DNA of 64,000 nucleotides from an uncultured Acidobacteriia bacterium. GTDB taxonomy: Bacteria; Acidobacteriota; Terriglobia; Bryobacterales; Bryobacteraceae. Positions within the stretch are counted from its first letter, which is position 1, and each line of letters opens with the position of its first letter. The notes beneath the pieces are model-generated. The model was given only the letters and a program-made list of their open reading frames with translations. It ran no database searches and had not been told where the DNA came from. The stretch spans positions 1-64,000 of the forward strand of contig CAIUOG010000055.1 of assembly GCA_903900705.1 (NCBI GenBank). The letters run 5' to 3'. Made by a program: the position numbers and the translations under genes. This document shows, piece after piece, positions 24,570-41,725 of this stretch.

Positions 24570-25541
24570 CTACCGGTTTCCCTTCCCAAATACCAGTACC
24601 CTCCCGTGCAGCGCGTCCGCCAGATAAACCCGGCCCTTCGCATCCACATGAATGGCATCCACCCGCTGCATCTGGTCAAGGCCGTCGCCTCTCTGTCCAA
24701 ATGATGTCACCGGGTGGCCCGCTTCGTCGTAAATCCGGACCACCATATGACCGGCATCCACCACCGCACAGCCGGACAACCGTTCATCGCACACAAATGG
24801 ACCCGGCACGCGAATGTCGTCCCATCTCGTCTCGCCCCGCAGCTTTCCCGCCGGACTGAATTCCTCCACCAGATTGGGGAAGCTGCCCAGTACATCCACC
24901 TGATTGCGTATTACCGACAACCAGACCGGCTGGTGCATTTCCCGCGGCAAGTGGAAGAAGGCGGTCTGCTCCCCTTCCCGGTTGAGGGTCACGACGCATT
25001 GCTTTCCCGCGTCCAGCACGAACAACGCGCTGCCATCGGCGGACAGCGCCAGGGAGACCGGGGTTTCCAGCAGTCGCCCGGCGCGCCGCGGAATCAGTGT
25101 CCGGTCGAACTCACCGGTCTCGTCAAAGACATATACACCGCCCGTCGCCGCATCCGCCAGATAGATGCGCCCCACCGCGTCTGCGATCATTCCCGAAGGG
25201 GATTGCAACGTGGCCTCACCAACGCGCCGGATCTCGCGGTAGGTACCCGGTTCCGGATCGAAGACATGCACCGATCCGGTTCCGCTGTCAGAGATCCAGA
25301 CCCGACCCTGGCGATCTGTCACCACGGACTGCGGCGAGCCGATGCCCCACGGAAATTCTCCCCGCCCGAACGCCGTATTCGCCGCCTTGCGGTTCAGAAC
25401 CTTCGGCGGATGGATTCCGCCACGGGTCCCAAACGTATATAAATGGCGGTACTGTGTTTCGCCCCGCGATTCCCGTGCCTCACGCTCCTGGCCGGACGCG
25501 GCGAGCACCAGCAACATCAGGCCGAAAGGGACGGTGCGCAT
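24570..25541 (-). CDS. Secreted NHL-repeat/beta-propeller protein (NHL-C)
   Basis: Signal peptide; repeats [40 protein letters not shown]. Confidence 0.85.
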
Positions 25542-25544
25542 GGG

Positions 25545-27341
25545 TTAGTAAGTTCGGGGATTGTGATTGTCGCCATGGCAGACCAGATAGCAGCCGCGGG
25601 TCGCTCCGGTGTTGAAATACCCGTAGTACGTCGTGGCACGGCTTACAACGCCGGTATCGAAATTGATCATGGCATGGTTGGCCGATGAGTTTCCGCCGAT
25701 GACGCCGTGCGGGTCGTGGCAGGTGGTGCATCCGTAACTGCGGTGATTGTCGTGGGGGCTGATGTTGGCGACAGTCGTGAGATTGTGGCACTTATTGCAC
25801 ATTGCCGACGCGGCATTGGAGTTTCCGGAGGAGCCCCCCAACGTCTCCTGATACAGCGTGAATTGCAGTAAATGCGGGAAAGTGGAGCCGTGCGGACCAT
25901 CGGGCCCGGTGCTGCTGATGGTGCGTGAGGCGTTGTTATTGTGGCAGTCGGTGCAGTAGATCAGGGATGTCTTCGTGAGGGGCCGGCTGGTGATATTCGC
26001 GCCATTGATATCAGTCACATACGGGCGCAGGGAGGAATTGCCGGTGTTCGCCACGCTGTTCCCCATGACGTTGTGCCCGATTGTGGAAGTGAATTTCAGC
26101 CGCAGGTTGTACTGGTCGGGAGGTGTCGGGGGCGGAGCGGTGTAGGTTGCCGGCAGAGGGCCTTCGAGATAACGTCCCGCCGTGCGTCCGTAAGAGCTGG
26201 TGGTAGGTTTGTTCGTGCTGTCCGCGTGGCACTTGAGACAAACCTGATACTCCTTCGTGGCCGGGACCTGGGAGCCCGTCGTGTCATATCCGCTGACGCC
26301 CGTCAGACTGAGCGGCAGCGCGGGTGGAAGCGGAAAGCCCGGCTGCGCCTGAGCCGCGTGATCGTTATGGCAGTCTTCGCACTCGGCGTGGCGCGTCGAG
26401 TTCACAGGCAGCGTCTCCGCCGCATCGTGTGCCCCGGTGACAGTCAAAGTGGGGTGCGAATATGTTTTACTGAACTCCGCCATCACATTGAGCGGCGCGG
26501 GCGAGACGTTCGCACCACTGTGGCAGGGGCTGCAATTCGCCTCTTCCTTCGCACGCAGATCCCGCGGTCCCGTGCCGTTCTGATGCGCCCCGTGACAGTT
26601 GGAACAGGCATTCGCGGCCACCGTGCCGTAAGCGCCAAATCCCGCAGTGGTGGGCACGGTGCTGGTCACGGTGGCGTGCGCTCCGCTGGTCCATCCGTTC
26701 AGAATATTGGGTTGCGGGCGAGTGGAATCATGGCATGCGGTACAGAGCGCGCCCGCGGCATTGGACCGGACCAGAAAATTCTTCGCCACGGCATCCTTGT
26801 TCTGCACATGAGGGTCGTGGCAGGTGGTGCATTCCACCTTTCCGCTGACCAGCAGCACGGTCGGATCCTTGCTCGCGGGACTGCTGCCGAAAAGTCCCGA
26901 GAATAGCTGACCGTTGTCCACGGGAGTCATGCTCACCGGGTGACTGGTTGCCAGATTGGCGCCGAAGACATCCCCCGGAGTCATGGAACCCGTTGTGGTG
27001 ATGGTCCCCTGCGCCACCGTCAGACCTACTGCAACTGTGCCGTCATGGCAGCTCAGACAGAGCTTTGAGGAACCGGCCGAAGGGGTCTGCGTGCCGGAGA
27101 CATAAGTGCTGCTCGTATAAGTAGTATAGGTCTGGACCGACAGTTTGTGATCCCACAGGGGAGTCACATTCGGCGTGATGTTGTGTGGAGCGTGGCAGAT
27201 AATACACGCGTCTATGGCCGCCGATTTCACCGGCCCTGTTCCGGCGGCAGTCAGGTCATGCTGACTCCCGATCACCGCGATCTTACTGCTCGCGCCGTAA
27301 GCACACACCGGGATCAGCAGCAGAGCCACACACAACCTCAT
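25545..27341 (-). CDS. Multiheme c-type cytochrome (MHC-C), 11 CxxCH plus one CX3CH
   Basis: CIICH, CLSCH, CTTCH, CTACH, CSNCH, CSPCH, CEDCH, CLKCH, CTDCH, CNKCH, CTTCH, CYLVCH; signal peptide. Confidence 0.93.
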   Translation of the reverse strand: MRLCVALLLIPVCAYGASSKIAVIGSQHDLTAAGTGPVKSAAIDACIICHAPHNITPNVTPLWDHKLSVQTYTTYTSSTYVSGTQTPSAGSSKLCLSCHDGTVAVGLTVAQGTITTTGSMTPGDVFGANLATSHPVSMTPVDNGQLFSGLFGSSPASKDPTVLLVSGKVECTTCHDPHVQNKDAVAKNFLVRSNAAGALCTACHDSTRPQPNILNGWTSGAHATVTSTVPTTAGFGAYGTVAANACSNCHGAHQNGTGPRDLRAKEEANCSPCHSGANVSPAPLNVMAEFSKTYSHPTLTVTGAHDAAETLPVNSTRHAECEDCHNDHAAQAQPGFPLPPALPLSLTGVSGYDTTGSQVPATKEYQVCLKCHADSTNKPTTSSYGRTAGRYLEGPLPATYTAPPPTPPDQYNLRLKFTSTIGHNVMGNSVANTGNSSLRPYVTDINGANITSRPLTKTSLIYCTDCHNNNASRTISSTGPDGPHGSTFPHLLQFTLYQETLGGSSGNSNAASAMCNKCHNLTTVANISPHDNHRSYGCTTCHDPHGVIGGNSSANHAMINFDTGVVSRATTYYGYFNTGATRGCYLVCHGDNHNPRTY

Positions 27342-28315
27342 TCCGACTTCCTCCGGAAGTGAAATACCTGCACACGGCGGTTCAGCGAATCCGCCACATA
27401 CATCACATTACGGCTGTCGATGGAAATACCGGAAGGCAACTGAAACTGGCCCGCCTGATTTCCGGTCGAACCGAAATAGTACAGCAGGTGGCCCTGCTGG
27501 TCGAATACCTGAACGGTCTCAAACAATGCATCCACCACATAGAGGTTTCCTTCGCTGTCGACGGCGATCCCCTTGGGCCGGTTCAGCGTGCCCGACGTGT
27601 TCCCCGGCTCGCCGAACGCGCTGACAAACTCACCCTCAGTGGTCAGGGTCTGGACGCGGAAATTCATGGAATCGACCACATGGAGGCGACCGGCGGATAA
27701 CGTGAGAGACGTCGGAAAATTGAACTCTCCTTCCGCCCTGCCACGCTTTCCGATCACACGTACCAGCGCGCCATCGGTACGAAAAACCAGGACCTGATGG
27801 CGCAGCGTATCGGCCACATACAAACGCCGCGCCGCGCGATCGAGAGCCATGCCCGTAGGGCGTTGCAGAGCAGTCGGCCCGGTACCGCCGATAAACCGGA
27901 GGAACTTGCCCCTGGTATCGAACACCAGGATTTTCCGGCGCACGGAATCCGAAACGTAAATATCGTCGTTCGAATCGCACGCCACATCGATCGGTGACTC
28001 AAATGTACTGCCACGCGGACCTTTCAGAAACTGGTATTTCTGCTTCTCGAAGTCATAAACGTGGACCCCCTTCTGCCCAGGGTCCGCTACCATCAAGCGT
28101 CCTCTGCTGTCCTGCGCGACCCCATACGGTCTTGTAACCTCCGGACGGTCCGGCGGCCCCACAATCCACTCGAAGACCTTCGGCAGAAAACTACGTGGCC
28201 GGGTGAACTCCCGGACCGAGGGAATCGTGCGCCAATACTCGATGCCGGCATGCGTGGTGGCGCCCGGTAACGGCAGGCAGGCAAGGAACCACAGGATGGC
28301 GGCGCGGGTTTTCAT
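27338..28315 (-). CDS. Secreted NHL-repeat protein (NHL-B)
   Basis: Repeats RPKGIAVDSEGNLYVVDALFETVQVFD, LPSGISIDSRNVMYVADSLNRRVQVF; 4-nt overlaps with both neighbours. Confidence 0.88.
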   Translation of the reverse strand: MKTRAAILWFLACLPLPGATTHAGIEYWRTIPSVREFTRPRSFLPKVFEWIVGPPDRPEVTRPYGVAQDSRGRLMVADPGQKGVHVYDFEKQKYQFLKGPRGSTFESPIDVACDSNDDIYVSDSVRRKILVFDTRGKFLRFIGGTGPTALQRPTGMALDRAARRLYVADTLRHQVLVFRTDGALVRVIGKRGRAEGEFNFPTSLTLSAGRLHVVDSMNFRVQTLTTEGEFVSAFGEPGNTSGTLNRPKGIAVDSEGNLYVVDALFETVQVFDQQGHLLYYFGSTGNQAGQFQLPSGISIDSRNVMYVADSLNRRVQVFHFRRKSE

Positions 28316-30204
28316 AGAAGCTTCGCGTTCCTTGAAATTCGCAGATACACACGACCGCGACGTGTCTCGGGATAGGTAGTGAAGGTCGTGAAGATCTGGC
28401 TCGAATCGGTGAATCCCATGTCCATCTGAATGCGCCGAAAATGGTAGGTCAGGTGCATGTCCAGAATCTGGAAGTCATTATTAATCACGCCATCGAGATG
28501 TTGCAGGGAATGCGTCCACAGCAATGAAATCTCCAGCTTCCTGACGGGCGTCGCGTGCAGCGTAATTGCCAGAGCACGCAGGTCGCTCGGCACGGGCCGG
28601 AGCACCCCGGCCAGCACAGAGCCCACCGCAATGTCACCGTAAAGCTGACTGTACAGCGGCAGAGAACTCCCCAGATTACTGTTGAGCGTGGCCGACATCT
28701 GCAACAGCGGATGCTCGATACCGAAGCGCCCCGTATAGCCTTTGCTCAGAAACGCACTGCCGCCGCTTTCGAAATTTCCCTGCTGCCAGCCGCCACCGGC
28801 GCGCACGCCCAGGCGTCCAAACAGATGCTGTGAGATGCTGCCTTCCGCCGAAAAGCTTCGGTCCGTGACCGGCTGCATATTCTGAAGGCTCTCGCTGTTC
28901 CCGTGCACCGAACCATCAAACTGCGTTGCGCCCGCTTTGCCTGCCTGAAACGAGACGAGATAGTTATCTCCGGCGAGCCGCCCCGACTGGCCTGTGACAG
29001 AGCCGCTGCCCAGTTCCCGGGCATATTGCCCCGAGACGTTCAGCCACTCAAATCTCTTGCTGTAAGTAACTCCGGCCGAGGCAGATGTGTAACTCCCGTT
29101 CACGGCGCCATCGGCGGGCGGAGTAAACACGCTGCTATGGTCCGCGCGCCCGTAGAGGCTGAGCTCTTTCGTCACCTGAAACGAAGTGGTGCCATTGAAA
29201 TTGAGACTGCCGATAGAGCGTTCGAGCAGGGCGAGCGTGGACGTGTCAGGCAAGACAGTTCCGGGGCCACCTGTTCCGAGTCCGCCGACGACGGAATTCA
29301 GCAACTGCCCGGATACGTTCGACGAATAGCCGGCATGCAACGCCGTCTTCCAGCGCCTCCGCTGAAATAGCCGGATATTCCCGTTTGCATAACTCGTCGT
29401 CAGATTAATGGGCATTCCCAGCAACACATTTGCGGTGGACTGCCGCCCGCCATCGAGATAAACTTCGGAATCGGTCCATACCGTGCGACGCGCCGATCCC
29501 TGATTCTGGTAAAGACGCTGCTGTAGCGCCGAGGTATTAATGACTCCCGCTGAGGGCGCGAACAGATCCGATTTCTGAGTCTGAATGTGACTGAAGCCCT
29601 CAATATCCCAGCCGTGCCAGTAATACTTCATGTCGGAGTTGAAGTGGTTCACGTGTGACGCGTAATCAGGGAGTCCCGCAATGCCGGAGTTCGACCCGAC
29701 CGAGCCGATACCCCAGTCGATCGTGATCGCCGGAAGGTCATGATACTTCACATTCCACGTCAGGCCCAAATCACTGTTTCGTGTTGCCAGGCGATAGGCC
29801 GACACCTGTGACAGGCTTCCGAAGTAGACGTCGGAAACGCGCAGATTCGAATAACGGAAGGTAAGAGGCGAGAGTCTCCGGAGCGCGGTGATGCGCATGG
29901 AGATGCCGTTACCGCCCTGAAAGCCCGCCTCACTGGCCTGCGGGCCGTAAACGAATTCCGGCTGCAGAGTGAAATTCAGAAAGTCCGGACTCATGTAATA
30001 ACCGTTAACGTCCAGAGAGATGCTGGCCGGCACAAAGTTGACCTTCTGATTTACCTGGCCGCGGGTCCAAGTCTCATAGTAGCCTGACGAGAAAACGCCA
30101 GACACGGTAAGTGGCACCGTCTGCGCGATTATCGCCGACGGCGACAGCAGACAGGTCAGGGTCAATAGAATTCTTTTGTCGAAATCAGTCATCTTCAGGT
30201 CCAT
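28312..30204 (-). CDS. Putative outer-membrane beta-barrel protein (porin-like)
   Basis: Signal peptide; long series of alternating amphipathic strands (e.g. PASISLDVNGYYMSPDFLNFTLQPEFVYG); no heme motifs; between cytochrome and NHL genes. Confidence 0.7.
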   Translation of the reverse strand: MDLKMTDFDKRILLTLTCLLSPSAIIAQTVPLTVSGVFSSGYYETWTRGQVNQKVNFVPASISLDVNGYYMSPDFLNFTLQPEFVYGPQASEAGFQGGNGISMRITALRRLSPLTFRYSNLRVSDVYFGSLSQVSAYRLATRNSDLGLTWNVKYHDLPAITIDWGIGSVGSNSGIAGLPDYASHVNHFNSDMKYYWHGWDIEGFSHIQTQKSDLFAPSAGVINTSALQQRLYQNQGSARRTVWTDSEVYLDGGRQSTANVLLGMPINLTTSYANGNIRLFQRRRWKTALHAGYSSNVSGQLLNSVVGGLGTGGPGTVLPDTSTLALLERSIGSLNFNGTTSFQVTKELSLYGRADHSSVFTPPADGAVNGSYTSASAGVTYSKRFEWLNVSGQYARELGSGSVTGQSGRLAGDNYLVSFQAGKAGATQFDGSVHGNSESLQNMQPVTDRSFSAEGSISQHLFGRLGVRAGGGWQQGNFESGGSAFLSKGYTGRFGIEHPLLQMSATLNSNLGSSLPLYSQLYGDIAVGSVLAGVLRPVPSDLRALAITLHATPVRKLEISLLWTHSLQHLDGVINNDFQILDMHLTYHFRRIQMDMGFTDSSQIFTTFTTYPETRRGRVYLRISRNAKLL

Positions 30205-30257
30205 CTGAGTTAAAGGCCCGGGTGGACGGCAAGTCAGCCGCCCACCCGATCATCGGC

Positions 30258-30911
30258 CTACAGGTGACAGGTGGTGCAGTGCGAGGCCGAATTCGCCTGG
30301 CGAAGGTAGTTTGTGTTGACGTCGTTGTGTGGATCGTGACAGGTCGCGCATTGCATCGTGTTGCTCGATCCATACAGGGGCAGCGTGGAGGAGACCGTGG
30401 CAACGGCCTGAAGCGAAGAATTCTTAGTCGGATCATACGGCAGGTTCACCGGATGATCGTTGGTCAGACCGAGTGATTCGAAGGCGCCGGTTCCAAACGA
30501 CGCACGGGAGCCTACCTGGTTCTTCGTCTGCATGGCAGGCGAGAAACTGGAGGTGACGCCATCGTGACAACTCAGACACAGCAGCGAGTACATACGAACA
30601 TCGGTCGATGTCGTCAGTGCGCTGCCGCCCAGTTCAACAGCTTTGTTCTGCATGGTATTCGAGTCATAAACCCCGAATGTGTTGGAAGATGCCGGAAAAC
30701 TGCGGGACCAAAGCAGGATGAGACCAGTGCCTTGCGTTCCACCGTTGGCGGAGGAGCCATTGTGCGGCGCGTGGCAGGACTTGCAACCATTACCGCCGAT
30801 ATCGTGAGTCGACCCGGCAAGGCCGGATTTGGGCAGGTTCGGCGCAGCGCCCGGCATGGAAATCGTTCCCATCCCCAAGAGGATGGCAAGTGTGAAATAC
30901 CTGTACTTCAT
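30258..30911 (-). CDS. Tetraheme c-type cytochrome (MHC-B)
   Basis: CKSCH, CLSCH, CATCH, CTTCH; signal peptide MKYRYFTLAILLGMGTISMPGAA. Confidence 0.92.
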   Translation of the reverse strand: MKYRYFTLAILLGMGTISMPGAAPNLPKSGLAGSTHDIGGNGCKSCHAPHNGSSANGGTQGTGLILLWSRSFPASSNTFGVYDSNTMQNKAVELGGSALTTSTDVRMYSLLCLSCHDGVTSSFSPAMQTKNQVGSRASFGTGAFESLGLTNDHPVNLPYDPTKNSSLQAVATVSSTLPLYGSSNTMQCATCHDPHNDVNTNYLRQANSASHCTTCHL

Positions 30912-31004
30912 GAATAATCTCTCCTTCAGAATTGAAAAGCACAATCAGTTTTTTATTGCGTTCCGGAACTTCGTCCGAACACGCGTTGACCGGGGATGAA
31001 TGCG

Positions 31005-32108
31005 TTACTTTGCGGCCTTCACCTCCTTTTTATCCGCTGCTTCCGGCTGTGGCAGGTACTGGAATACCTGAATCCGCCCATGGAACATCTCGGTTGTATA
31101 GATGCGGTCCTGTGGATCAATCCACAGTCCTGTCACCAGCGCGAATTCGCCGCGCCCCGCGCCAAGTGTTCCCACCGCAAGCAAAGGCTGACCTTCGCGG
31201 GAAAGGATCTGAAAGTTATTGAATTCCGCATCCGCCACGTAGACGTGCCCCTGAGAATCGACCGCGATGCCCTTCGGTCGGATGAACTCGCCGGGCCGAT
31301 CCCCCTGCGCGCCAAAAGACCGCAGAAACCGACCGTTGGTGTCCAGAACCTGCACTCTGTAATTGCCGGTATCGGCAACGTAGACGTTGCCCTCGTGGTC
31401 TACCGCTACGTTCGTTGGCCCGGTGAAACGGCCCTTTTCTTTCTTTCCGGGAGTACTGGGACCACCCATTTCGCCTAATAACTCCATGGTCTTCGTATCG
31501 AAGACAACAATCTTGTTTTGCTTTGCATCCGCCACATAAAGTTTGTTGCGGCTCTTATCGATGGCAATGCCGCCGGGACGACCCAGAGCGCTGGTCCCGA
31601 AGTGGGCAATCGGCTGCCCGTTCGAAGCGAAACAAACAATGGTATGAAGGTCGGCGTCAGAGACAAACAGGCGGTCTGTGCTGTCGAGAGCGACTCCGGC
31701 TGGTAAAGACAGAGGGGCCCTACTGCTCGACTCGCGCGTCTCTACGATTCGGTTTACCGGATCGATCACATAGACCAGCTTCAGTTCCGTGTCGGCGGTA
31801 TAGATGCGCCCCCGGGAATCCGTCGCGATGCCGTAAGGTTTCCGCAGTTCCTGCTTCTCATCCGCCGTCTTGGTGCCGGTCACCTTATCGAGCCAGCTGT
31901 TTTTCTTAGCTTCCGGTTTTTTGACTTTTGCCATGTCGGTATATTCCGCGAGCCAGCGAACGCGCGGAGGATCGGGCGGCAGGGGCCAGGTAAGATCGGC
32001 GGTGGCGGTGCCCGGGATGACCGGACCTTTTTTGTTGTCGGCCGCGCGCAGGAGCAGGCAAAGGACGCCAAGCATGATCAGGGCATGCAGGCAGGAACTG
32101 AATTTCAT
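31005..32108 (-). CDS. Secreted NHL-repeat protein (NHL-A)
   Basis: LTWPLPPDPPRVRWLAEY followed by NHL repeats (GPTNVAVDHEGNVYVADTGNYRVQVLD, RPKGIAVDSQGHVYVADAEFNNFQIL). Confidence 0.9.
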   Translation of the reverse strand: MKFSSCLHALIMLGVLCLLLRAADNKKGPVIPGTATADLTWPLPPDPPRVRWLAEYTDMAKVKKPEAKKNSWLDKVTGTKTADEKQELRKPYGIATDSRGRIYTADTELKLVYVIDPVNRIVETRESSSRAPLSLPAGVALDSTDRLFVSDADLHTIVCFASNGQPIAHFGTSALGRPGGIAIDKSRNKLYVADAKQNKIVVFDTKTMELLGEMGGPSTPGKKEKGRFTGPTNVAVDHEGNVYVADTGNYRVQVLDTNGRFLRSFGAQGDRPGEFIRPKGIAVDSQGHVYVADAEFNNFQILSREGQPLLAVGTLGAGRGEFALVTGLWIDPQDRIYTTEMFHGRIQVFQYLPQPEAADKKEVKAAK

Positions 32109-32725
32109 TTATGACACCTCAGACAAAGGGATTCGAAAGTTTCGGTCTCTGTGACCAGTAACTGGCTGCTCTTATCGGTGCTGTGCGGGTCATGGCAGGT
32201 CAGGCAGCTGATCGCCGGCCATTCCTTGTCTTCCTTTCGGGACACGGGATGATTGGAAACGGGATGACCGCGCCCTTCGCTAAGGGCGATCGTCTTTGCG
32301 GACCCGCTTGCGCCCGCCAGGTGACATCCCAGACACAGCTTGTTTGGCTCAGCGGTTTTCAGCATGAGCCCCCCACTGGCGTGGGGATCGTGGCAGAATG
32401 TGCAATCCTGGGCGACCGGGGCATGCACAAATTCCTTCGCAGCCTTCCCGGCATGGCAGGCCGAACACAACTCCGTCACTTTGGCCGCAAGGTAGAACTC
32501 CCCGGGCTTGGGCTTTGGATTCTCGCCATGCGTCACGTGGCAGGCGTCACATCCGCCCCCCATAGCCGGATGGAGATTCTTCGCAGACGTGGCGGGTCGC
32601 AGCAGTGTGTGGCATCCCAGACAGGCCTCATCCGTGCCGATGTTGCCCGTCGCGGCGCCCGCGGCAGCCAGCAAGAGGCTAACCAGCGAGAACAGACGGC
32701 ATATCACGAACGGCGATATCGGCAT
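32105..32725 (-). CDS. Heptaheme c-type cytochrome, doubled-CXXCH type (MHC-A)
   Basis: CLGCH, CDACH, CSACH, CTFCH, CLGCH, CLTCH, CLRCH; signal peptide from MPISPFVIC. Confidence 0.92.
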   Translation of the reverse strand: MPISPFVICRLFSLVSLLLAAAGAATGNIGTDEACLGCHTLLRPATSAKNLHPAMGGGCDACHVTHGENPKPKPGEFYLAAKVTELCSACHAGKAAKEFVHAPVAQDCTFCHDPHASGGLMLKTAEPNKLCLGCHLAGASGSAKTIALSEGRGHPVSNHPVSRKEDKEWPAISCLTCHDPHSTDKSSQLLVTETETFESLCLRCHK

Positions 32726-32892
32726 AGAACGGGAAGCGCGCCTTCCTGGCATCGCTAAGTCCTTAAGTGTTTCGGCGCAGCCCTGGAAATATATCCAGCG
32801 TCACAAAAAGTGGTAAAGAAATTTTTCAGTGAGCTTATATTTTTTGTTCTCCCTCAGCACTCTTGCTTAGTGTGTGGGAAGGTTGGGAGTCA

Positions 32893-34827
32893 ATGCGGAG
32901 ACCTGCCGGAATTCGCCTGGCACCAGGCATTCTCCTCATAGTGGCGGCGAGTCTTCAGGCTCAGATTTCACCGGGTCCGCTGTCCCTCGCCCATGCTTCA
33001 CTCGAAGGCGTCACGAAGTGCGCCAACTGTCACGACTTCGGCGCGGGAACCAAGCGATTTCGCTGTCTGGAATGTCATTTGGAAATCAAACAAAGGCTCG
33101 ACACCCACACCGGGTTTCACACGCGCGCCGTCAAACCCCTTCCCGGCGAGGCCGACTGCGCACGTTGTCACATGGAGCATAACGGACAGTCATTCGCCCT
33201 GACCCGGTTGGATCGGCGACACTTCGATCACGTCGCGCAGACCGGCTTTGCGCTCGAAGGAAAGCACCTCGGGCAGAAGTGCGAGTCCTGTCACAACGCA
33301 AAGAACCTTCCCTCGGAAGCTCGCTCCGTTATTAAGGTGAAAGATCCGGCGCGCAGCTTTCTGGGCCTGAGGCGCGACTGCGCAGGTTGCCATAAGGACA
33401 TACACGCCGGCCAGTTGGGAGCCGCCTGCTCCAACTGCCACAATCAGGACTCCTGGTCGCAGGCGCCGGGCTTCAATCACGCCCGCACGCCGTTCCAACT
33501 CACCGGACTGCATCAGTCTGTCGCCTGCGCAAAGTGCCACCTGCCGCAGCGGCAGGCTTCGGCGGAAAAGCAACTGCTTTTCAAGGGGCTATCCTTTTCG
33601 GGTTGCCAATCCTGCCACAACGATCCCCACCGCGGCGGCTTCAAAGACGCGAAAGTACGTGGCGGTTGCGAGACCTGTCACACTACCGCGGGCTGGAAGA
33701 GCAACCGCCCCGCGTCCGGCTTCGACCACGCGAATACGAAGTTTCCGCTAACCGGGGCTCACGCGGCGAAGGCGTGTGCGCAGTGTCATAAAGACAGCGA
33801 TTTCCACCGCCCGATTCCGCACGACAAGTGCGGCGACTGCCATCAGGATGTTCACAGCGGCCAGTTCACCGCCCGGCCCCAGGGCTCCGATTGCGCCTCG
33901 TGCCACAACGACATATCTTTCAAACCGCCTCTGTTTAACCGCGAAACCCACCGCACCGCCGCTTTTCCGCTCACCGCCATGCATGAGCGAGTCGCCTGCG
34001 CCGCCTGTCACAAAGCCGAAGGAAAGGCGACCGTCTGGGAGACCCGACTGTTGCAATGCGCCGGTTGTCACCAGGATGTTCACGCGGGCCAGTTCGAGGC
34101 GGCGCCCTGGACCAACCAGTGTTCTCTCTGCCACAACCAGTCCGGCTTCGACCGTAACTCTTTCTCGGTTGAACGTCACGCTATGACCAGGTTCGCACTC
34201 AAGGGCCGTCATGAAAAAGTCTCTTGTGAATCCTGTCACAAAGTACTCAATCCCGCTCCCGGCTTCCTCGCGAAAGTGAGTACGCCCGCCCGGCAATTCC
34301 GGTTCCCCTCCCGCGCCTGCAATACCTGCCACGCCGATCCGCATCGGCAGGGGCAAAAAGTCGCAGCCTGTGAAAATTGCCACACGGAGGCCTCGTGGAC
34401 TTCGTCTTTGCCTTTCGATCACAAGACGACGCGTTTTCCGCTTACGGGACGACATGTCCGCGTCAATTGCAACCAGTGTCATAACCCGGTCAGCCCTGGC
34501 GGCAGCGCCATTGCAAAGCTGGCGCCGGCGTTTTCTTCCACGCCAACGCTCTGTTCCGGCTGCCACAAGGACCCCCACGGAGGCCAGTTCCGCAAGGGCC
34601 AGGGGCGCCCGGATGCGCCCGAAGAGGAATGTTCCAATTGCCACACCACCTCCGGATGGGGCGGGGCCGATTTTGACCATGAAAAAACCCGCTATCCGCT
34701 CGACCGGGCACATATGAACGTTCCCTGCGCAAAGTGCCACAAGAATGCTCTCGGCGCGGAACGGGATTCCTCCGCCCGCATTCGGATGTTCCGGGGAACG
34801 GCCATGGAGTGCGTCTCATGCCACTGA
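32893..34827 (+). CDS. 23-heme c-type cytochrome (MHC-D)
   Basis: 23 CxxCH counted by eye; signal peptide; last residues ECVSCH*. Confidence 0.94.
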   Translation: MRRPAGIRLAPGILLIVAASLQAQISPGPLSLAHASLEGVTKCANCHDFGAGTKRFRCLECHLEIKQRLDTHTGFHTRAVKPLPGEADCARCHMEHNGQSFALTRLDRRHFDHVAQTGFALEGKHLGQKCESCHNAKNLPSEARSVIKVKDPARSFLGLRRDCAGCHKDIHAGQLGAACSNCHNQDSWSQAPGFNHARTPFQLTGLHQSVACAKCHLPQRQASAEKQLLFKGLSFSGCQSCHNDPHRGGFKDAKVRGGCETCHTTAGWKSNRPASGFDHANTKFPLTGAHAAKACAQCHKDSDFHRPIPHDKCGDCHQDVHSGQFTARPQGSDCASCHNDISFKPPLFNRETHRTAAFPLTAMHERVACAACHKAEGKATVWETRLLQCAGCHQDVHAGQFEAAPWTNQCSLCHNQSGFDRNSFSVERHAMTRFALKGRHEKVSCESCHKVLNPAPGFLAKVSTPARQFRFPSRACNTCHADPHRQGQKVAACENCHTEASWTSSLPFDHKTTRFPLTGRHVRVNCNQCHNPVSPGGSAIAKLAPAFSSTPTLCSGCHKDPHGGQFRKGQGRPDAPEEECSNCHTTSGWGGADFDHEKTRYPLDRAHMNVPCAKCHKNALGAERDSSARIRMFRGTAMECVSCH

Positions 34828-35768
34828 TACAGGAACGTCCCGTCACCCCGGCGTCGCGTCCGGGAAAAGTCCGGTCAGATACGCGACAGCCAGTTACCCT
34901 GCTAGTCGCGGTTGCTCTGGCGGTGATTCTGGTCGCCGCACTGGTCGTCACCGGCTTTCCCTACTACACGCTGCCGCCCGAGGAAAGGCCATTGTCACCG
35001 CTCCATGCGCTACTGCGCTCCAGCGGAATCATCGGCCTGAAATTGGGTATCCTCGGCGTTCTGCTGTTTGGCGTCCTGTTCCTTTATCCGCTGCGGAAGC
35101 GCTGGAAATGGCTGGCCGGAATCGGCAACACCCGCCGGTGGCTGAACGCTCATGTCTTTGTCGGAATCACCGCGCCCATCGTCATCACGTTCCATGCCGC
35201 ATTTAAGTCGCACGGGCTTGCCGGCGTTGCGTACTGGATCATGGTCATCGTGGCCTGCAGCGGCTTCGTGGGCCGCTATCTCTATGCGAAAATTCCCCGC
35301 CGCCTCAACGCGGTGAAACTCGACGCCGCTGAACTTGAAGCAGTGACAGCCACTCTCACTTCCCAGGTCGGCGCACAGGGCCTTTTCAGCGCCGCTGACT
35401 TCCTCCCGCTTCTCAATATCCCTTCGGCCGAGGAAATCCGTTCCCTGAACCTCCTCCATGCCTGGTGGATCATGCTACGTCTCGATGTCGCCCGTCCGTT
35501 CCAGGTGGGCCGCCTTCGCCGTCGCGTCCTCGCCGGTTCCCGCAAGTGGACCACCCTCGGCGGACTGCTTTCCTCCCATGACCAAACCGTGGAATCCATC
35601 GTCAGCAACGTCCGCCGGCTGGCCGGGCTCAGAACCGCCACCGCTTTTCTGCACAAAACCGAGCGCGTCTTCCACCTTTGGCACGTCATCCATCGGCCCT
35701 TCAGCCTGTCTTTTGTCGTGCTGGTGGTGATTCACGTGTGCGTCGCGTTATCCGTAGGAGTTCGCTGA
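34818..35768 (+). CDS. Integral membrane protein, possible b-type cytochrome / ferric-reductase-like
   Basis: Several TM helices with paired His (LNAHVFVGITAPIVITFHAAFKSHG; FHLWHVIHRPFSLSFVVLVVIHVC); overlaps MHC-D. Confidence 0.7.
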   Translation: MPLIQERPVTPASRPGKVRSDTRQPVTLLVAVALAVILVAALVVTGFPYYTLPPEERPLSPLHALLRSSGIIGLKLGILGVLLFGVLFLYPLRKRWKWLAGIGNTRRWLNAHVFVGITAPIVITFHAAFKSHGLAGVAYWIMVIVACSGFVGRYLYAKIPRRLNAVKLDAAELEAVTATLTSQVGAQGLFSAADFLPLLNIPSAEEIRSLNLLHAWWIMLRLDVARPFQVGRLRRRVLAGSRKWTTLGGLLSSHDQTVESIVSNVRRLAGLRTATAFLHKTERVFHLWHVIHRPFSLSFVVLVVIHVCVALSVGVR

Positions 35769-35775
35769 AGCCGCC

Positions 35776-37110
35776 ATGCCGGATACCTGGGGCTTCTACG
35801 CCTTCTACTCCGTAATTCTGCTGATCCCGATGGTCTGGTACATCCGCCGGCAGTTGCATCGCGAGAAACAGGTCCGCGAGGCCGCGGCCAAAGGCCAGGT
35901 GTTTACCGAAGCGCCGCTTGGGTTTCATCCGCAGATTGACGTCTCCCATTGCATCGGCTGCCAGGGCTGCACCTCCGTTTGTCCGGAAGGGCAGGTGCTC
36001 GGCATGGTGGGCGGAAAGGCAGCCGTGGTCAGGCCGTGGCGTTGTATCGGGCACAGCCTCTGTTCGGAAGCCTGCCCGGTGGGGGCCATCAGGATGGTGC
36101 GCGCTGCGCCCGGAATCAATGCCCGGCTACCCTTTCTCACCGAGGAGTTCGAAACTTCTGTTCCCAACCTTTACATCGCCGGCGAACTCGGAGGTCTGGC
36201 CCTGATCCGGAATGCCGTGCAACAGGGCGCCGAATGCATTGATGTCATTGCCGCCCGGCTCGCCGCCGCGCCCGACCGCGGCGCCGCGGCGATTACAGAC
36301 GTGATTATCGCCGGCGCCGGACCCGCCGGCATCAGCGCCGGCCTTCGAGCTCTTGAACTCGGACTGAGCTTCCTCGTCCTGGAACGCGATGAGGTGGGCG
36401 GGACGATCACCAAATATCCCCGCCAGAAGCTGGTCATGACGACAACGTTCAGCTTCCCGCTCTACCCACCGGAAAAGAAACGGCAGTTATCCAAGGAATA
36501 TATCGTCGATTTCTTCCGGACCGTGACAGCACGACCCGATTTCTCCATTCGCGCTCACGAAGAAGTGAAGAATATCCACGCCAACCCGGACGGTACGCTC
36601 ACCGTATCCACAGGCACTTCCCACTACCAGTGCCGCGCCGTGATTCTCGCCATGGGCCGCGCCGGTTCACCCAACAAGCTGGGAATCCCGGGCGAGGAAC
36701 TCGCCAAGGTGATGTACCGGCTGATTGAGGCGGATCACTATACGAACCGGAGAATTCTGGTCGTCGGCGGTGGCGACAGCGCGGTGGAGGCGGCCATGGG
36801 CCTCGCCATGCAACCGGGCAACAAGGTCACCCTCTCCTACAGGCGCAGTGAGTTCGCCCGTATCAAAGAGCGGAATGCGCAGAGGCTCGAAAGTGAGATT
36901 CGTGCGCGCCGAATTGAAGTTCTCTTCAATTCAGCACCGGTCGCGATCACCCAGGACACCGTCTCAATTCAAACGCCGGAAGGTATCCTTGAACTACCCA
37001 ACGACTACGTCTGGGTCTTCGCCGGCGGCGCGGCACCGGACGACTTCCTGAAGAAGATCGGCATCCACTACGGCCCCCGGGATCTGACGCGGGAAACCGT
37101 GCTCAGCTAA
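35776..37110 (+). CDS. Membrane-anchored Fe-S / FAD-NAD(P) oxidoreductase
   Basis: N-terminal TM; CIGCQGCTSVCP and CIGHSLCSEACP; FAD GAGPAGISAGLRALE; second Rossmann VVGGGDSAVEAAMGLA. Confidence 0.88.
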   Translation: MPDTWGFYAFYSVILLIPMVWYIRRQLHREKQVREAAAKGQVFTEAPLGFHPQIDVSHCIGCQGCTSVCPEGQVLGMVGGKAAVVRPWRCIGHSLCSEACPVGAIRMVRAAPGINARLPFLTEEFETSVPNLYIAGELGGLALIRNAVQQGAECIDVIAARLAAAPDRGAAAITDVIIAGAGPAGISAGLRALELGLSFLVLERDEVGGTITKYPRQKLVMTTTFSFPLYPPEKKRQLSKEYIVDFFRTVTARPDFSIRAHEEVKNIHANPDGTLTVSTGTSHYQCRAVILAMGRAGSPNKLGIPGEELAKVMYRLIEADHYTNRRILVVGGGDSAVEAAMGLAMQPGNKVTLSYRRSEFARIKERNAQRLESEIRARRIEVLFNSAPVAITQDTVSIQTPEGILELPNDYVWVFAGGAAPDDFLKKIGIHYGPRDLTRETVLS

Positions 37111-38152
37111 GCGGTTCGCCGTTCTCCGTCTCTGAGAACCTGCGCTGGATAGACTCGATTTCCTGGTCGTCAATGGCGTTGAAACACCGGACAATGTCCG
37201 GGTCGAGATGCGTACCGCTGACCCGTCGAATTTCTTCGCGCGCCGCGGCAAGGGTTCCCGCTTTGCGGTAGGGCCGGTTCGAACAAATCGCGTCTAAGGT
37301 GTCGGAAATCGCGAATATCCGGGCATTCAGGGGAATGTCCGTGCCGGCCAGAGCGTTCGGATAACCGGAGCCATTGAACCGCTCATGGTGACAAAGCACC
37401 AGGGCGCGCTCGGCGTCGAAATCCGGAACCTCGGAGAGCAGGCTCGCGCCAATCGAAGGATGCAGGCGCATCAGCCGCCACTCCTCGTCCGTGAGACGAC
37501 CGGGTTTATCGATAACATTTTGCGGGATGGCCACCTTGCCGATATCGTGCAGCAAAGCACCGGTTTCGAGTTGCTGCAGGGGCACACCCGCCAGACCGTA
37601 GCGCTGTCCGATCAGACGGGCGATCGCCGCCACGCGCTGCGAATGCTGCAGTGTCTCGAAGCGCCGGGTTCCCAGCGTGTCAAGCAACGGCAGGAGACGT
37701 CCGGACACGTCGCCGCCCGGGCCGCTTGCCGAAGCCAGAAACGCGCGTACCTGCACGCGCGCCGCCTCTTCGTTCCAGACCGCTCCGCTGCGAAGGTACT
37801 TCGCAACCGCGGCGACCAGATCCTCCTCGGTGACGGGCTTGAACAGATACTCGGTCGCTTTACCGCGCCAGGCATCCATCGCGAGAGGCTGGTCGTATAA
37901 CCCGGAGAGCAAGAGAAAGGGAAGATCGGGAATCGTCTCGCGCACGCGGCTCAGGAACTCTATGCCGTTCATCTCCGGCATCCGGATGTCGGAAACGATC
38001 AGCGCCACCTCATCGCCATGGTCCGCCAGGTACTCCAGCGCTTCCCGGCAATTCCCGAAACTCAGACAGTTGTAGCCGTTATCGGACAGGACGCAGGTCA
38101 GGTATTCCCTGACCATGTCCTCGTCGTCAACCAGCAGGATCCGATGGCGCAT
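37103..38152 (-). CDS. Response regulator with HD-GYP domain
   Basis: Receiver RILLVDDEDMVREYL...VSDIRMPEMNG; HDIGKVAIP, HHERFNGSGYP. Confidence 0.93.
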   Translation of the reverse strand: MRHRILLVDDEDMVREYLTCVLSDNGYNCLSFGNCREALEYLADHGDEVALIVSDIRMPEMNGIEFLSRVRETIPDLPFLLLSGLYDQPLAMDAWRGKATEYLFKPVTEEDLVAAVAKYLRSGAVWNEEAARVQVRAFLASASGPGGDVSGRLLPLLDTLGTRRFETLQHSQRVAAIARLIGQRYGLAGVPLQQLETGALLHDIGKVAIPQNVIDKPGRLTDEEWRLMRLHPSIGASLLSEVPDFDAERALVLCHHERFNGSGYPNALAGTDIPLNARIFAISDTLDAICSNRPYRKAGTLAAAREEIRRVSGTHLDPDIVRCFNAIDDQEIESIQRRFSETENGEPLS

Positions 38153-38277: not shown

Positions 38278-38610
38278 TTATTTTTTCAGCGTGCGGAGGA
38301 AAGCAACCACATCATCGGCATTGACCGACTTCACCGGCTTCATTTTGCCTTTGCCTTCCGAAATTACCTTCGCCAGATCTCCGTCTGCCTTGCCTTGTAC
38401 TTCCGCGGAACCAAGGTCCGGGATGGTGACGCTCAGCATCTTGGCGATTGCCGGGTTTCCCGCGCCTGTTGCTCCGTGGCAGCCCTTACAGGACTTGTCA
38501 AACGCGGCGCCGCCGGCCTTTGCATCGGCTCCAAAACCAGCCACTGCCAGCGCGAGGGTGGCCACCGCGATCATCATGATTTTTTTCATCTCTATTTTTC
38601 CTTTCGGCAC
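38278..38610 (-). CDS. Monoheme class I cytochrome c
   Basis: Signal peptide; CKGCHGATGAGNPAIAKML; VVAFLRTLKK ending. Confidence 0.9.
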   Translation of the reverse strand: MPKGKIEMKKIMMIAVATLALAVAGFGADAKAGGAAFDKSCKGCHGATGAGNPAIAKMLSVTIPDLGSAEVQGKADGDLAKVISEGKGKMKPVKSVNADDVVAFLRTLKK

Positions 38611-39996: not shown

Positions 39997-40527
39997 TCAG
40001 CGTTTCGCCTTGATGTCCGGACGTGAGTCCGGCACAAAACCGTCGCGATTCGGCATCACCACCTTCGGCAGCGTCTGCGCGTTCATCTCTTCATTGCGCT
40101 GCACGATGCCGTTCAGGAACAGTATGTAGGCCGTCACGGCATACACATCGTTGGGCGGCAGAATATGGGGCGTGTTGAACGGCATGGCGCGGTTGATGTG
40201 ATCGAAGACCGTCGTCGCGTAGGGCCAGTAGCTGCCCACCGTCTTCTTTGGCTTAGCCGTCGCGAGGCTTCCGATGCCGCCCACCAGCGCGGGATAGGCG
40301 CCGGGCCGCCCCTGTCCGCCCTCGTTGTGACAAACCACGCACCGGCTTTTGAAGACCACCTCGCCCTGAACAGCAGTTCCCTTCCCCGCCGGAAGGCCCG
40401 TTCCATCCGGCAAGATGGTGATGTCCATGGCGCGAACCTCTTCGGGCGTTGCCGGACGCCCCAGGCCATGCGGCTGCGCATTCAGCAGAGTGGCCAACGC
40501 GAGGCAGCTAAGCAGGAATCGAGACAT
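39997..40527 (-). CDS. Cytochrome c subunit of sulfite dehydrogenase-type enzyme
   Basis: CVVCHNEGGQGRPG heme motif; signal peptide; overlaps the SoxC-like gene. Confidence 0.85.
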   Translation of the reverse strand: MSRFLLSCLALATLLNAQPHGLGRPATPEEVRAMDITILPDGTGLPAGKGTAVQGEVVFKSRCVVCHNEGGQGRPGAYPALVGGIGSLATAKPKKTVGSYWPYATTVFDHINRAMPFNTPHILPPNDVYAVTAYILFLNGIVQRNEEMNAQTLPKVVMPNRDGFVPDSRPDIKAKR

Positions 40528-41725
40528 GCGTCACCTCCCCGTTTGCGTGTACTTTCCATGGCTTGATGGCATTGTAGTGGTACCCGCTGTTCAGCCCGCG
40601 AACAGCCACCAGTTCCTCGCGCGTGGGTTGCAGATAGCCCGTCTCATCGGTGCAGCGGCACTGGATCACGGTTTCCTGCCCATCCCATATCCATGGCAGC
40701 CGAAAGGCCGTCAGCGCCTGCGAAAGCACCGGCTCCCGCAGCGTGGCGACCGCCCAGGTCTGCCCACCGTTCAGCGAAACCTCCACCTTTTCGATCTTCC
40801 CGCGCCCTGACCAGGCGAGACCCACAATCTCATGAAAGCCCGGCTTCAGCTTCTGGCCGCCCGAAGGCCGCGTGATGACGGAACGCGCCTCCATCACGAA
40901 GGTGAACATCTCAGCCTTGCCGTCCCGGCGCAGTTCGGTGTAATAGGCCGTCTCTTTGCTGGACATGGCGGGCTGATCAAGAACGTTCAGCCGTCGCAGC
41001 CACTTCACGTTCATGTTGCCTTCGAACCCCGGCAGAATTAGCCGCAGCGGATAGCCCTGCTCCGGCCGCAGAGCCTCGCCGTTCTGCCCATAGACGAGCA
41101 GCGCGTCCGACATCACTTTTTCCATCGGAATACTGCGCGCCAGCCGGCAGTTGTCCGCGCCTTCCGCGATCACCCACTTCGCCTCGGGTTTCACGCCCGA
41201 TTCCTGAAGCAGAACGCGCAGCGGCACACCGGTCCATTCCGCGCCGCTCACCAGGCCGTGGCTCTGCTGCACGTCGGGTGTCGGCACGCCGCGCTGGTCG
41301 CCGATGTTGTTCCCGCCGCATTCGAGAAAACAAATGCGGGAGACCGCCGGGAAGCGCCGGATATCGTCGATCGTGAAGACCAGCGGCGTCTCCACAAGGC
41401 CATGCACGAGGAGCGTGTGCGTGGCCGGATCGAGCGCGGGCACTCCCGCATGGTGCCGCTCGAAATGCAGGGACGAAGGCGTGATCCATCCCGGAAACAG
41501 GTCGCCCAAAGGCGTGCGGCTGGACCCGGTGCCGGAGCTGGCCGATAAATCCCGAATGGCGCGCAGGGGCTTTTCCAGTGGAGACCGCTCTCCGTACGGG
41601 CGCATGTTGGCCGCCGGAGAGGCCTCCGGCGCAGCCGCCGCCGGTGCGCCTCCCGGTTTCCCGCAGGAAGTCAGCGCCGCCGCCCCGGCGCTGGCCGCCA
41701 GAAACTGCCGCCTGCTTTTCGCCAT
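40508..41725 (-). CDS. soxC: Sulfite dehydrogenase / SoxC-like molybdopterin oxidoreductase
   Basis: Tat leader SRRQFLAASAG; FLECGGNN, SGAEWTGVPLRVLL, LILPGFEGNMNVKWLRRL, Mo-co dimerisation domain. Confidence 0.88.
   Translation of the reverse strand: MAKSRRQFLAASAGAAALTSCGKPGGAPAAAAPEASPAANMRPYGERSPLEKPLRAIRDLSASSGTGSSRTPLGDLFPGWITPSSLHFERHHAGVPALDPATHTLLVHGLVETPLVFTIDDIRRFPAVSRICFLECGGNNIGDQRGVPTPDVQQSHGLVSGAEWTGVPLRVLLQESGVKPEAKWVIAEGADNCRLARSIPMEKVMSDALLVYGQNGEALRPEQGYPLRLILPGFEGNMNVKWLRRLNVLDQPAMSSKETAYYTELRRDGKAEMFTFVMEARSVITRPSGGQKLKPGFHEIVGLAWSGRGKIEKVEVSLNGGQTWAVATLREPVLSQALTAFRLPWIWDGQETVIQCRCTDETGYLQPTREELVAVRGLNSGYHYNAIKPWKVHANGEVTHVSIPA

What the first reader, a model, noticed from the sequence alone, without database searches (positions are those of the whole stretch)
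24570..37110. Divergent electron-transfer island: four multiheme cytochromes, three NHL propellers, a putative barrel, b-type membrane protein and Fe-S flavoprotein
Seen: minus strand MHC-A (7 hemes) - NHL-A - MHC-B (4) - barrel - NHL-B - MHC-C (12) - NHL-C; plus strand MHC-D (23) - membrane protein - Fe-S/FAD oxidoreductase. Several starts and stops overlap by 3-4 nt. Established: porin plus multiheme cytochrome sets (MtrCAB, Geobacter porin-cytochrome complexes) move electrons across the outer membrane. Inference: this could be a trans-envelope conduit from NAD(P)H/quinol (flavoprotein and b-type protein) via periplasmic hemes to an outer-membrane barrel complex, with unusually many propeller proteins.
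Basis: partly seen in the sequence, partly recalled or inferred. Interest (0 to 1): 0.8.

Follow-up and report, generated by a model that had tools for sequence, protein, structure and literature searches.

The report
Acidobacterial nanowire and electron-conduit gene island
A soil-type bacterium (an acidobacterium) carries, in one block, genes that look able to pass electrons from its inner membrane, through a protein barrel in its outer membrane, onto a filament of heme proteins outside the cell; the same outer half recurs in many phyla.

Summary
In detail: all ten genes are at the stated coordinates, with 7, 4, 12 (11 CXXCH + 1 CX3CH) and 23 heme motifs. The island joins two modules. (1) Minus strand: an outer-membrane cassette. 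The 28312-30204 protein is predicted as a large beta-barrel whose best solved match is MtrB (6R2Q_B). MHC-A's best match is chain A of the same complex. MHC-B and the N-terminal third of MHC-C match only two PDB sequences, the OmcE nanowire (7TFS) and 9YUQ, and keep all eight heme ligands. The core order (OmcE-like tetraheme, NHL, barrel, NHL, dodecaheme) recurs in about ten phyla and corresponds to the described Uet system. (2) Plus strand: MHC-D (23 hemes), a ~300-aa membrane protein with every sequence motif of the PCC3/PCC4 inner-membrane protein, and an Fe-S/FAD protein. This module is common in Acidobacteriota, usually without the cassette. Likely function: trans-envelope electron transfer ending in an OmcE-type filament. 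Known parts, so a new variant, not a new kind; new are the joining of the modules and MHC-C as candidate adaptor between barrel and filament. No expression or biochemical evidence exists; filament formation and direction of electron flow are inferred.

The parts
32105..32752 (-). MHC-A: heptaheme c-type cytochrome, MtrA/DmsE-like repeat; candidate conduit inside the barrel
   Evidence: 7 CXXCH; best PDB match 6R2Q chain A (Mtr complex) E 3e-13; profile match to the pentaheme 'DGVP' lipoprotein at the barrel of other phyla, probability 99.5%; absent in four relatives, pentaheme in one
31005..32108 (-). NHL-A: secreted NHL beta-propeller
   Evidence: Pfam NHL E 7e-34; 4-nt overlap with MHC-A; kept in relatives at 46-67% identity
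30258..30944 (-). MHC-B: tetraheme OmcE-like cytochrome, predicted filament subunit (probable start 30911)
   Evidence: profile matches only 7TFS (OmcE) E 8e-23 and 9YUQ in PDB; four CXXCH and four distal His aligned with OmcE and 91-100% conserved in a 47-row alignment of window, OmcE and 45 relatives; only full-length copy in the genome
28312..30204 (-). Outer-membrane beta-barrel, MtrB-like fold, family absent from Pfam/NCBIfam
   Evidence: AF2 pLDDT 76, about 26-28 long antiparallel strands; Foldseek best PDB match 6R2Q_B (MtrB) E 2.5e-10, TM 0.50
27338..28315 (-). NHL-B: secreted beta-propeller between barrel and MHC-C
   Evidence: Pfam NHL E 2e-28; an NHL gene lies directly upstream of MHC-C in 66 of 75 testable loci
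25545..27341 (-). MHC-C: dodecaheme cytochrome; residues 1-204 OmcE-like, remainder 8 further hemes; UetJ-like
   Evidence: residues 6-206 match 7TFS E 1e-25; 11 CXXCH + CX3CH pattern, CX3CH present in 74/74 relatives, ligands conserved; at least 557 relatives found
24570..25541 (-). NHL-C: third, degenerate propeller, seen only in this lineage and close kin
   Evidence: Pfam NHL E 5e-9; present downstream of MHC-C in L011, L014, L016, L018, L022, L023
32753..32862 (.). A+T-rich divergent intergenic region between the two transcription units
   Evidence: 110 bp (140 bp to the ATG at 32893); a sigma-70-like match on the minus strand, not evidence of function
32863..34827 (+). MHC-D: 23-heme cytochrome, PCC3-periplasmic-MHC-like (probable start 32893)
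   Evidence: 23 CXXCH; Cytochrome_C7/c3 repeats E 3e-27; C-terminal quarter matches DmsE below cut-off; orthologues keep 23 hemes
34734..35768 (+). Inner-membrane diheme b-type protein, PCC3/PCC4 IMP-like (probable start 34818)
   Evidence: WX3HX13H at 136 and 316, SGXXG at 176, all invariant in orthologues; 35/150 family and 50/297 phylum genomes; next to an FeS/FAD gene or a 14-20-heme gene at nearly every locus read
35776..37110 (+). Membrane-anchored Fer4 + FAD/NAD(P)-binding oxidoreductase
   Evidence: Fer4_10 E 7e-11, Pyr_redox_3 E 4e-46; N-terminal hydrophobic helix 5-23, two GxGxx[GA] motifs

Best explanation
The island encodes a complete electron path across a Gram-negative envelope. 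Electrons from the quinone pool, or from a reduced nicotinamide/ferredoxin via the Fe-S/FAD protein, reach the diheme b protein in the inner membrane. They pass to MHC-D, a 23-heme wire that may be long enough to cross the periplasm, then to the MtrA-like MHC-A (or directly from MHC-D) inside the MtrB-like barrel. At the outer face they enter MHC-C. Its N-terminal domain is an OmcE-type protomer, so it can join the barrel's heme chain to a polymer of MHC-B, an OmcE-type filament subunit. The NHL propellers sit at the outer membrane or outside and assist secretion, folding or capping. Shown here: gene content and order, fold or profile matches, ligand conservation, recurrence. Inferred: filament formation, the docking order, the propeller role, and net outward flow (extracellular respiration on metal oxides or humics).
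For: Barrel is MtrB-like by fold. MHC-A is closest to chain A of the Mtr complex. MHC-B and the MHC-C N-terminus are OmcE-like, with only two PDB sequences hit out of 177,635 and all eight axial histidines conserved. The membrane protein meets the published sequence motifs of the PCC3/PCC4 inner-membrane protein. Gene order is conserved across phyla and the divergent junction in five other genomes. The cassette components match the Uet system described for Tenderiales and Gallionella. The same genome has a second, canonical MtrCAB-type cluster, so an EET lifestyle is plausible.
Against: No expression, proteomic or electrochemical data. AF2 on MHC-B gave pLDDT 49, so the OmcE likeness rests on sequence. 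Multiheme profiles share CXXCH spacing, which can inflate E-values. MHC-A is missing in four relatives that keep the rest, so it cannot be the only conduit. The PPIase of other cassettes is absent here. Physiological use of cytochrome filaments as conduits is itself disputed (PMC11077965, PMC13194489). The membrane module usually occurs without the cassette, so their coupling may be loose.
Confidence: 0.7

Rival explanations
1. A porin-cytochrome conduit without filaments: MHC-B and MHC-C are monomeric surface cytochromes (as proposed for UetA/UetJ) that hand electrons to soluble or mineral partners; OmcE likeness is only shared ancestry.
For: Uet was described as a porin-MHC complex with an extracellular tetraheme, not as a filament. 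OmcE is reported as not essential for current or Fe(III) oxide reduction in Geobacter. AF2 gave no confident fold for MHC-B.
Against: Distal-ligand histidines, including the N-terminal one, are conserved as in OmcE, where one heme is ligated by the neighbouring subunit.
Confidence: 0.25
2. Electron uptake rather than export: the system oxidises extracellular Fe(II), Mn(II) or a partner and feeds electrons inward to quinone and, via the Fe-S/FAD protein, to NAD(P)+.
For: Uet and PCC3 were both proposed for cathode or Fe(II) oxidisers. The flavoprotein could take part in reverse electron flow.
Against: An MtrCAB-type cluster with an OmcA/MtrC homologue, classically a reductive system, lies in the same genome. 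Autotrophy genes were not looked for.
Confidence: 0.25
3. Two unrelated systems that merely lie back to back: an outer-membrane OmcE/Uet-like cassette and a separate MHC-D/IMP/flavoprotein module with its own partners.
For: The membrane protein of the plus-strand module is about 3-4 times commoner than the barrel in the family (35 v 8 of 150) and elsewhere sits with giant cytochromes instead.
Against: The same divergent junction is kept in five other genomes (G399, G348, G428, G441, G353), and MHC-D also follows MHC-C in another family (G073).
Confidence: 0.2

Closest known systems
Uet (undecaheme electron transfer) system of Ca. Tenderia electrophaga and some Gallionella (Eddie et al. 2022, as described in PMC10734462)
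   Same: 11-CXXCH doubled-motif cytochrome (MHC-C ~ UetJ), tetraheme cytochrome (MHC-B ~ UetA), beta-barrel (~ UetC), two NHL proteins (~ UetHI).
   Different: No triheme UetDEG and no PPIase UetB in the locus; MHC-A (7 hemes) and a third NHL are present; joined to a PCC3-like inner-membrane module.
OmcE cytochrome nanowire of Geobacter sulfurreducens (PDB 7TFS)
   Same: MHC-B matches over nearly its whole length with all four CXXCH and all four distal histidines; MHC-C carries the same domain at its N-terminus.
   Different: Distant in sequence; filament formation not shown; MHC-C adds eight hemes.
MtrAB(C) porin-cytochrome conduit of Shewanella (PDB 6R2Q)
   Same: Barrel is closest in fold to MtrB; MHC-A closest in sequence to chain A of the complex.
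   Different: Barrel shows no sequence relation to MtrB/PioB models; MHC-A has 7 hemes, not 10; no MtrC homologue here (one exists elsewhere in the genome).
PCC3 / PCC4 putative porin-cytochrome clusters (He et al. 2017, PMC5566968)
   Same: 23-heme cytochrome resembles the PCC3 periplasmic MHC (median 21 hemes); membrane protein has the two WX3HX13H motifs and SGXXG of the PCC3/PCC4 IMP.
   Different: The PCC3 porin and giant extracellular MHC are replaced here by the OmcE/Uet-like cassette; an Fe-S/FAD protein follows the IMP. No sequence comparison with PCC3 proteins was made.
omcS-companion (osc) nanowire assembly cluster, GSU2500-GSU2493 (Shen et al. 2025; paper not held, contents recalled from memory; existence of the eight-gene block confirmed in PMC12977616)
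   Same: From memory: a beta-propeller, channel-like outer-membrane proteins and a prolyl isomerase accompany a nanowire cytochrome.
   Different: OmcS is not OmcE; no sequence comparison was possible; no PPIase in the window's locus (present in other Acidobacteriota loci).

Membership tests
Uet system | Undecaheme (11 CXXCH) doubled-CXXCH cytochrome | tested here: met
   11 CXXCH + 1 CX3CH, Paired_CXXCH_1 E 8e-19; CX3CH in 74/74 relatives, 71 of them with 11 CXXCH
Uet system | Tetraheme cytochrome, beta-barrel and two NHL proteins in the same cluster | tested here: met
   conserved order in loci from about ten phyla
Uet system | Triheme cytochromes UetDEG and PPIase UetB in the cluster | tested here: not met
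   No such genes in 24570-37110; PPIase found at the equivalent place in other Acidobacteriota
Uet system | Homology to Tenderia Uet sequences | not testable with these tools
OmcE-type cytochrome nanowire | Four bis-His hemes with the OmcE ligand pattern | tested here: met
   8 of 8 ligand histidines aligned, 91-100% conserved; E 8e-23
OmcE-type cytochrome nanowire | Polymerisation through an inter-subunit His-heme bond | not testable with these tools
   Candidate donor histidine H47 is conserved; AF2 model uninformative
MtrAB porin-cytochrome conduit | Large (about 26-strand) beta-barrel of the MtrB/PioB family | tested here: inconclusive
   Fold closest to MtrB, TM 0.50, but no MtrB_PioB (PF11854/TIGR03509) hit
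MtrAB porin-cytochrome conduit | Decaheme MtrA/DmsE cytochrome above curated cut-off | tested here: not met
   MHC-A has 7 hemes; DmsE score 65.5 v cut-off 192.2; best PDB match is still 6R2Q chain A
PCC3 inner-membrane protein | About 300 aa, two WX3HX13H motifs and one SGXXG motif | tested here: met
   W136/H140/H154, W316/H320/H334, SGFVG at 176, invariant in orthologues; definition in PMC5566968
PCC3 inner-membrane protein | Five transmembrane helices, motifs on TM3 and TM5 | tested here: inconclusive
   Hydropathy shows strong segments at 54-72, 99-117, 139-157, 161-179 and 325-343, i.e. five with the histidine pairs at the third and fifth, but also one weak segment at 212-230; a simple profile, not a structure
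PCC3 cluster | Porin plus very large extracellular MHC in the same cluster | tested here: not met
   Neither lies on the plus strand here; giant MHCs occur with the same module in other genomes
Respiratory nitrite/tetrathionate reductase | NrfA/NrfH or related family hit above cut-off | tested here: not met
   NrfH, NrfB and related hits far below cut-off

The most novel reading that the evidence does not exclude
MHC-C is the missing electrical and mechanical anchor of OmcE-type nanowires: a filament protomer fused to an eight-heme domain that plugs the polymer into an MtrB-like barrel. The cassette MHC-B/NHL/barrel/NHL/MHC-C, found in about ten phyla, would then be a self-contained machine that builds and wires a cytochrome filament, here joined directly to its own inner-membrane electron source.
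Probability: 0.35. Interest if true: 0.85.

Novelty: new variant of a known kind. Interest (0 to 1): 0.6.

Why it matters
How cytochrome nanowires are anchored in, and electrically joined to, the cell envelope is stated as unresolved in a 2025 review (PMC12307469). This locus and its many relatives offer a concrete candidate: a filament-type domain fused to an octaheme extension, usually encoded beside a barrel and propellers. If true, it makes the anchoring question directly testable, extends OmcE-type wiring to many uncultured phyla including soil Acidobacteriota, and suggests that envelope-spanning electron paths are assembled from exchangeable inner and outer halves.

Tried and rejected
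AF2 of MHC-B with 47 sequences: pLDDT 49, uninformative, no fold search made. The membrane protein against PDB by profile: nothing credible. The barrel against PDB by profile: nothing. MHC-D against PDB by phmmer: nothing. Barrel against the same genome's MtrB-like protein: no similarity. Eddie 2022, Wang 2022 (OmcE) and Shen 2025 were not in the library. Considered and rejected: nitrite or tetrathionate reduction, and a defence function (two proteins only). A quick codon-based gene caller missed low-GC loci, so neighbourhoods were redone from all ORFs.
Full report
OBSERVATION. Heme motifs number 7 (MHC-A), 4 (MHC-B), 12 (MHC-C: 11 CXXCH and one CX3CH) and 23 (MHC-D). Three proteins carry NHL repeats. 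Three gene pairs overlap by 4 nt.

RECURRENCE. The window lies in a 6.1-Mb, near-complete genome. Orthologues of the barrel occur in 8 of 150 genomes of the same family, the window's own included. Of 297 genomes across the phylum only one other has a detectable barrel relative, and that one is distant (G073, 25% identity). The regions around them keep the order NHL-A, MHC-B, barrel, NHL-B, MHC-C, usually then NHL-C. In five other genomes of the family, MHC-D, the membrane protein and, in four of them, the Fe-S/FAD protein lie divergently on the other side. Ten genus-mates keep purQ, most with purL read beside it, but none of those loci has the island beside it, so the island is an accessory block in this genus. 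Base composition does not mark it as foreign.

OUTER HALF. The barrel family is absent from Pfam and NCBIfam. AlphaFold2 on a ten-sequence alignment gave pLDDT 76 and roughly 26-28 long antiparallel strands. Foldseek ranked MtrB of the Mtr complex first (E 2.5e-10, TM 0.50; next hits LptD, TM about 0.35). A profile of MHC-A finds chain A of that complex first (E 3e-13); the library labels that chain with an unrelated enzyme name, but the entry is the Mtr complex and the 333-aa length fits MtrA. In other phyla the gene next to the barrel is a pentaheme lipoprotein with a DGVP motif that aligns with MHC-A. MHC-A is absent in four relatives, so MHC-D, whose C-terminal part also resembles DmsE, may enter the barrel there.

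NANOWIRE LIKENESS. Profiles of MHC-B and of MHC-C each match only two PDB sequences at E up to 0.01: OmcE (7TFS; E 8e-23 and 1e-25) and 9YUQ, a 'putative multiheme cytochrome c'. In MHC-C the match covers residues 6-206. In a 47-row alignment of the window, OmcE and 45 relatives, four CXXCH histidines and four further histidines (47, 61, 164, 206) line up with OmcE and are 91-100% conserved. In 74 MHC-C relatives the same ligands are 99-100% conserved, and all 74 have the CX3CH site. In OmcE one heme is ligated by a histidine of the neighbouring subunit (PMC9473688). The donor in MHC-B is probably H47; this is inference. Structure prediction of MHC-B failed.

BREADTH. One genome-collection scan with the MHC-C profile gave at least 557 relatives; the best 80 loci come from Acidobacteriota, Verrucomicrobiota, Planctomycetota, Nitrospirota, Pseudomonadota, Bacteroidota, Myxococcota and others. 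An NHL gene lies directly upstream of MHC-C in 66 of 75 testable loci. An OmcE-like tetraheme is present in 46 of 61 loci with at least 6 kb of flank (counts are lower bounds because contigs end). The MHC-C tree largely follows phyla, with the window in a supported acidobacterial group. Some Acidobacteriota loci carry a SurA/PpiC-type isomerase between MHC-B and the barrel.

INNER HALF. The membrane protein has two WX3HX13H motifs and an SGXXG motif, invariant in its orthologues. These are the published marks of the PCC3/PCC4 inner-membrane protein, proposed to bind two b hemes and exchange electrons with quinone (PMC5566968). Relatives occur in 35 of 150 family and 50 of 297 phylum genomes, some of them weak partial matches. 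Among the 48 loci examined, nearly all have a neighbouring Fe-S/FAD gene or a cytochrome with 14 or more hemes. In other Acidobacteriota the module is MHC-D, a giant cytochrome (up to 64 CXXCH), two unknown proteins, the membrane protein and usually the Fe-S/FAD protein, with no NHL/barrel cassette in the regions read.

MECHANISM AND RIVALS. The most economical reading is an envelope-spanning path: b-type protein, MHC-D, MHC-A/barrel, MHC-C, MHC-B filament. Each component's identity is supported by sequence or fold; each contact is inferred. Direction is open. The genome's separate MtrCAB-type cluster with a NapC/NrfH-like partner makes extracellular respiration plausible, but Uet and PCC3 were proposed for uptake. 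The physiological role of cytochrome filaments is itself debated.

KNOWN AND NEW. The outer cassette is Uet-like. Undecaheme-centred porin-cytochrome clusters are reported in cave metagenomes in which most such clusters belong to Gammaproteobacteria or Acidobacteriota (PMC13264449), porin-MHC clusters in bog Verrucomicrobia (PMC5615132), and NHL-cytochrome clusters in Desulfovibrio ferrophilus (PMC9769857). I found no paper in the library that links the Uet-type tetraheme and undecaheme to OmcE, nor one that describes the two modules joined; absence from an open-licence library is weak evidence. Verdict: a new variant of a known kind.

Noticed in passing
L180:4876-12507 (same genome, contig C118): A canonical MtrCAB-type cluster: OmcA/MtrC decaheme (TIGR03507, E 8e-138), DmsE/MtrA decaheme above cut-off, MtrB_PioB barrel above the Pfam cut-off, a further c-type cytochrome and a NapC/NrfH-like multiheme protein, followed by bd oxidase genes.
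   Followed up: partly
L177:2272-7059, L170:3075-6929, L173:3323-6295, L172:13497-15860: Giant cytochromes with 64, 51, 40 and 31 CXXCH motifs in other Acidobacteriota, each between a 23-heme MHC-D and the diheme b membrane protein, with two Pfam-less proteins (about 550 and 255 aa).
   Followed up: partly
L019:8155-10920: In a genome of another acidobacterial family the barrel carries a 290-residue N-terminal extension; an AMIN domain was found in one member of the barrel alignment, most likely this one, which would suggest peptidoglycan anchoring.
   Followed up: no
L063, L090, L079, L062, L074 and similar loci: In Bacteroidota/Ignavibacteriota/KSB1-type loci the cassette is rearranged (NHL, MHC-C, then tetraheme, NHL, often a pentaheme), and some carry two OmcE-like genes.
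   Followed up: no
window 39997-41725: Molybdopterin oxidoreductase of the sulfite-oxidase type next to a monoheme cytochrome c, a likely sulfite dehydrogenase pair; another monoheme cytochrome c lies at 38278-38610.
   Followed up: partly
window 37103-38152: Response regulator with an HD domain, convergent with the Fe-S/FAD gene and overlapping its 3' end by 8 nt; not known to regulate the island.
   Followed up: partly
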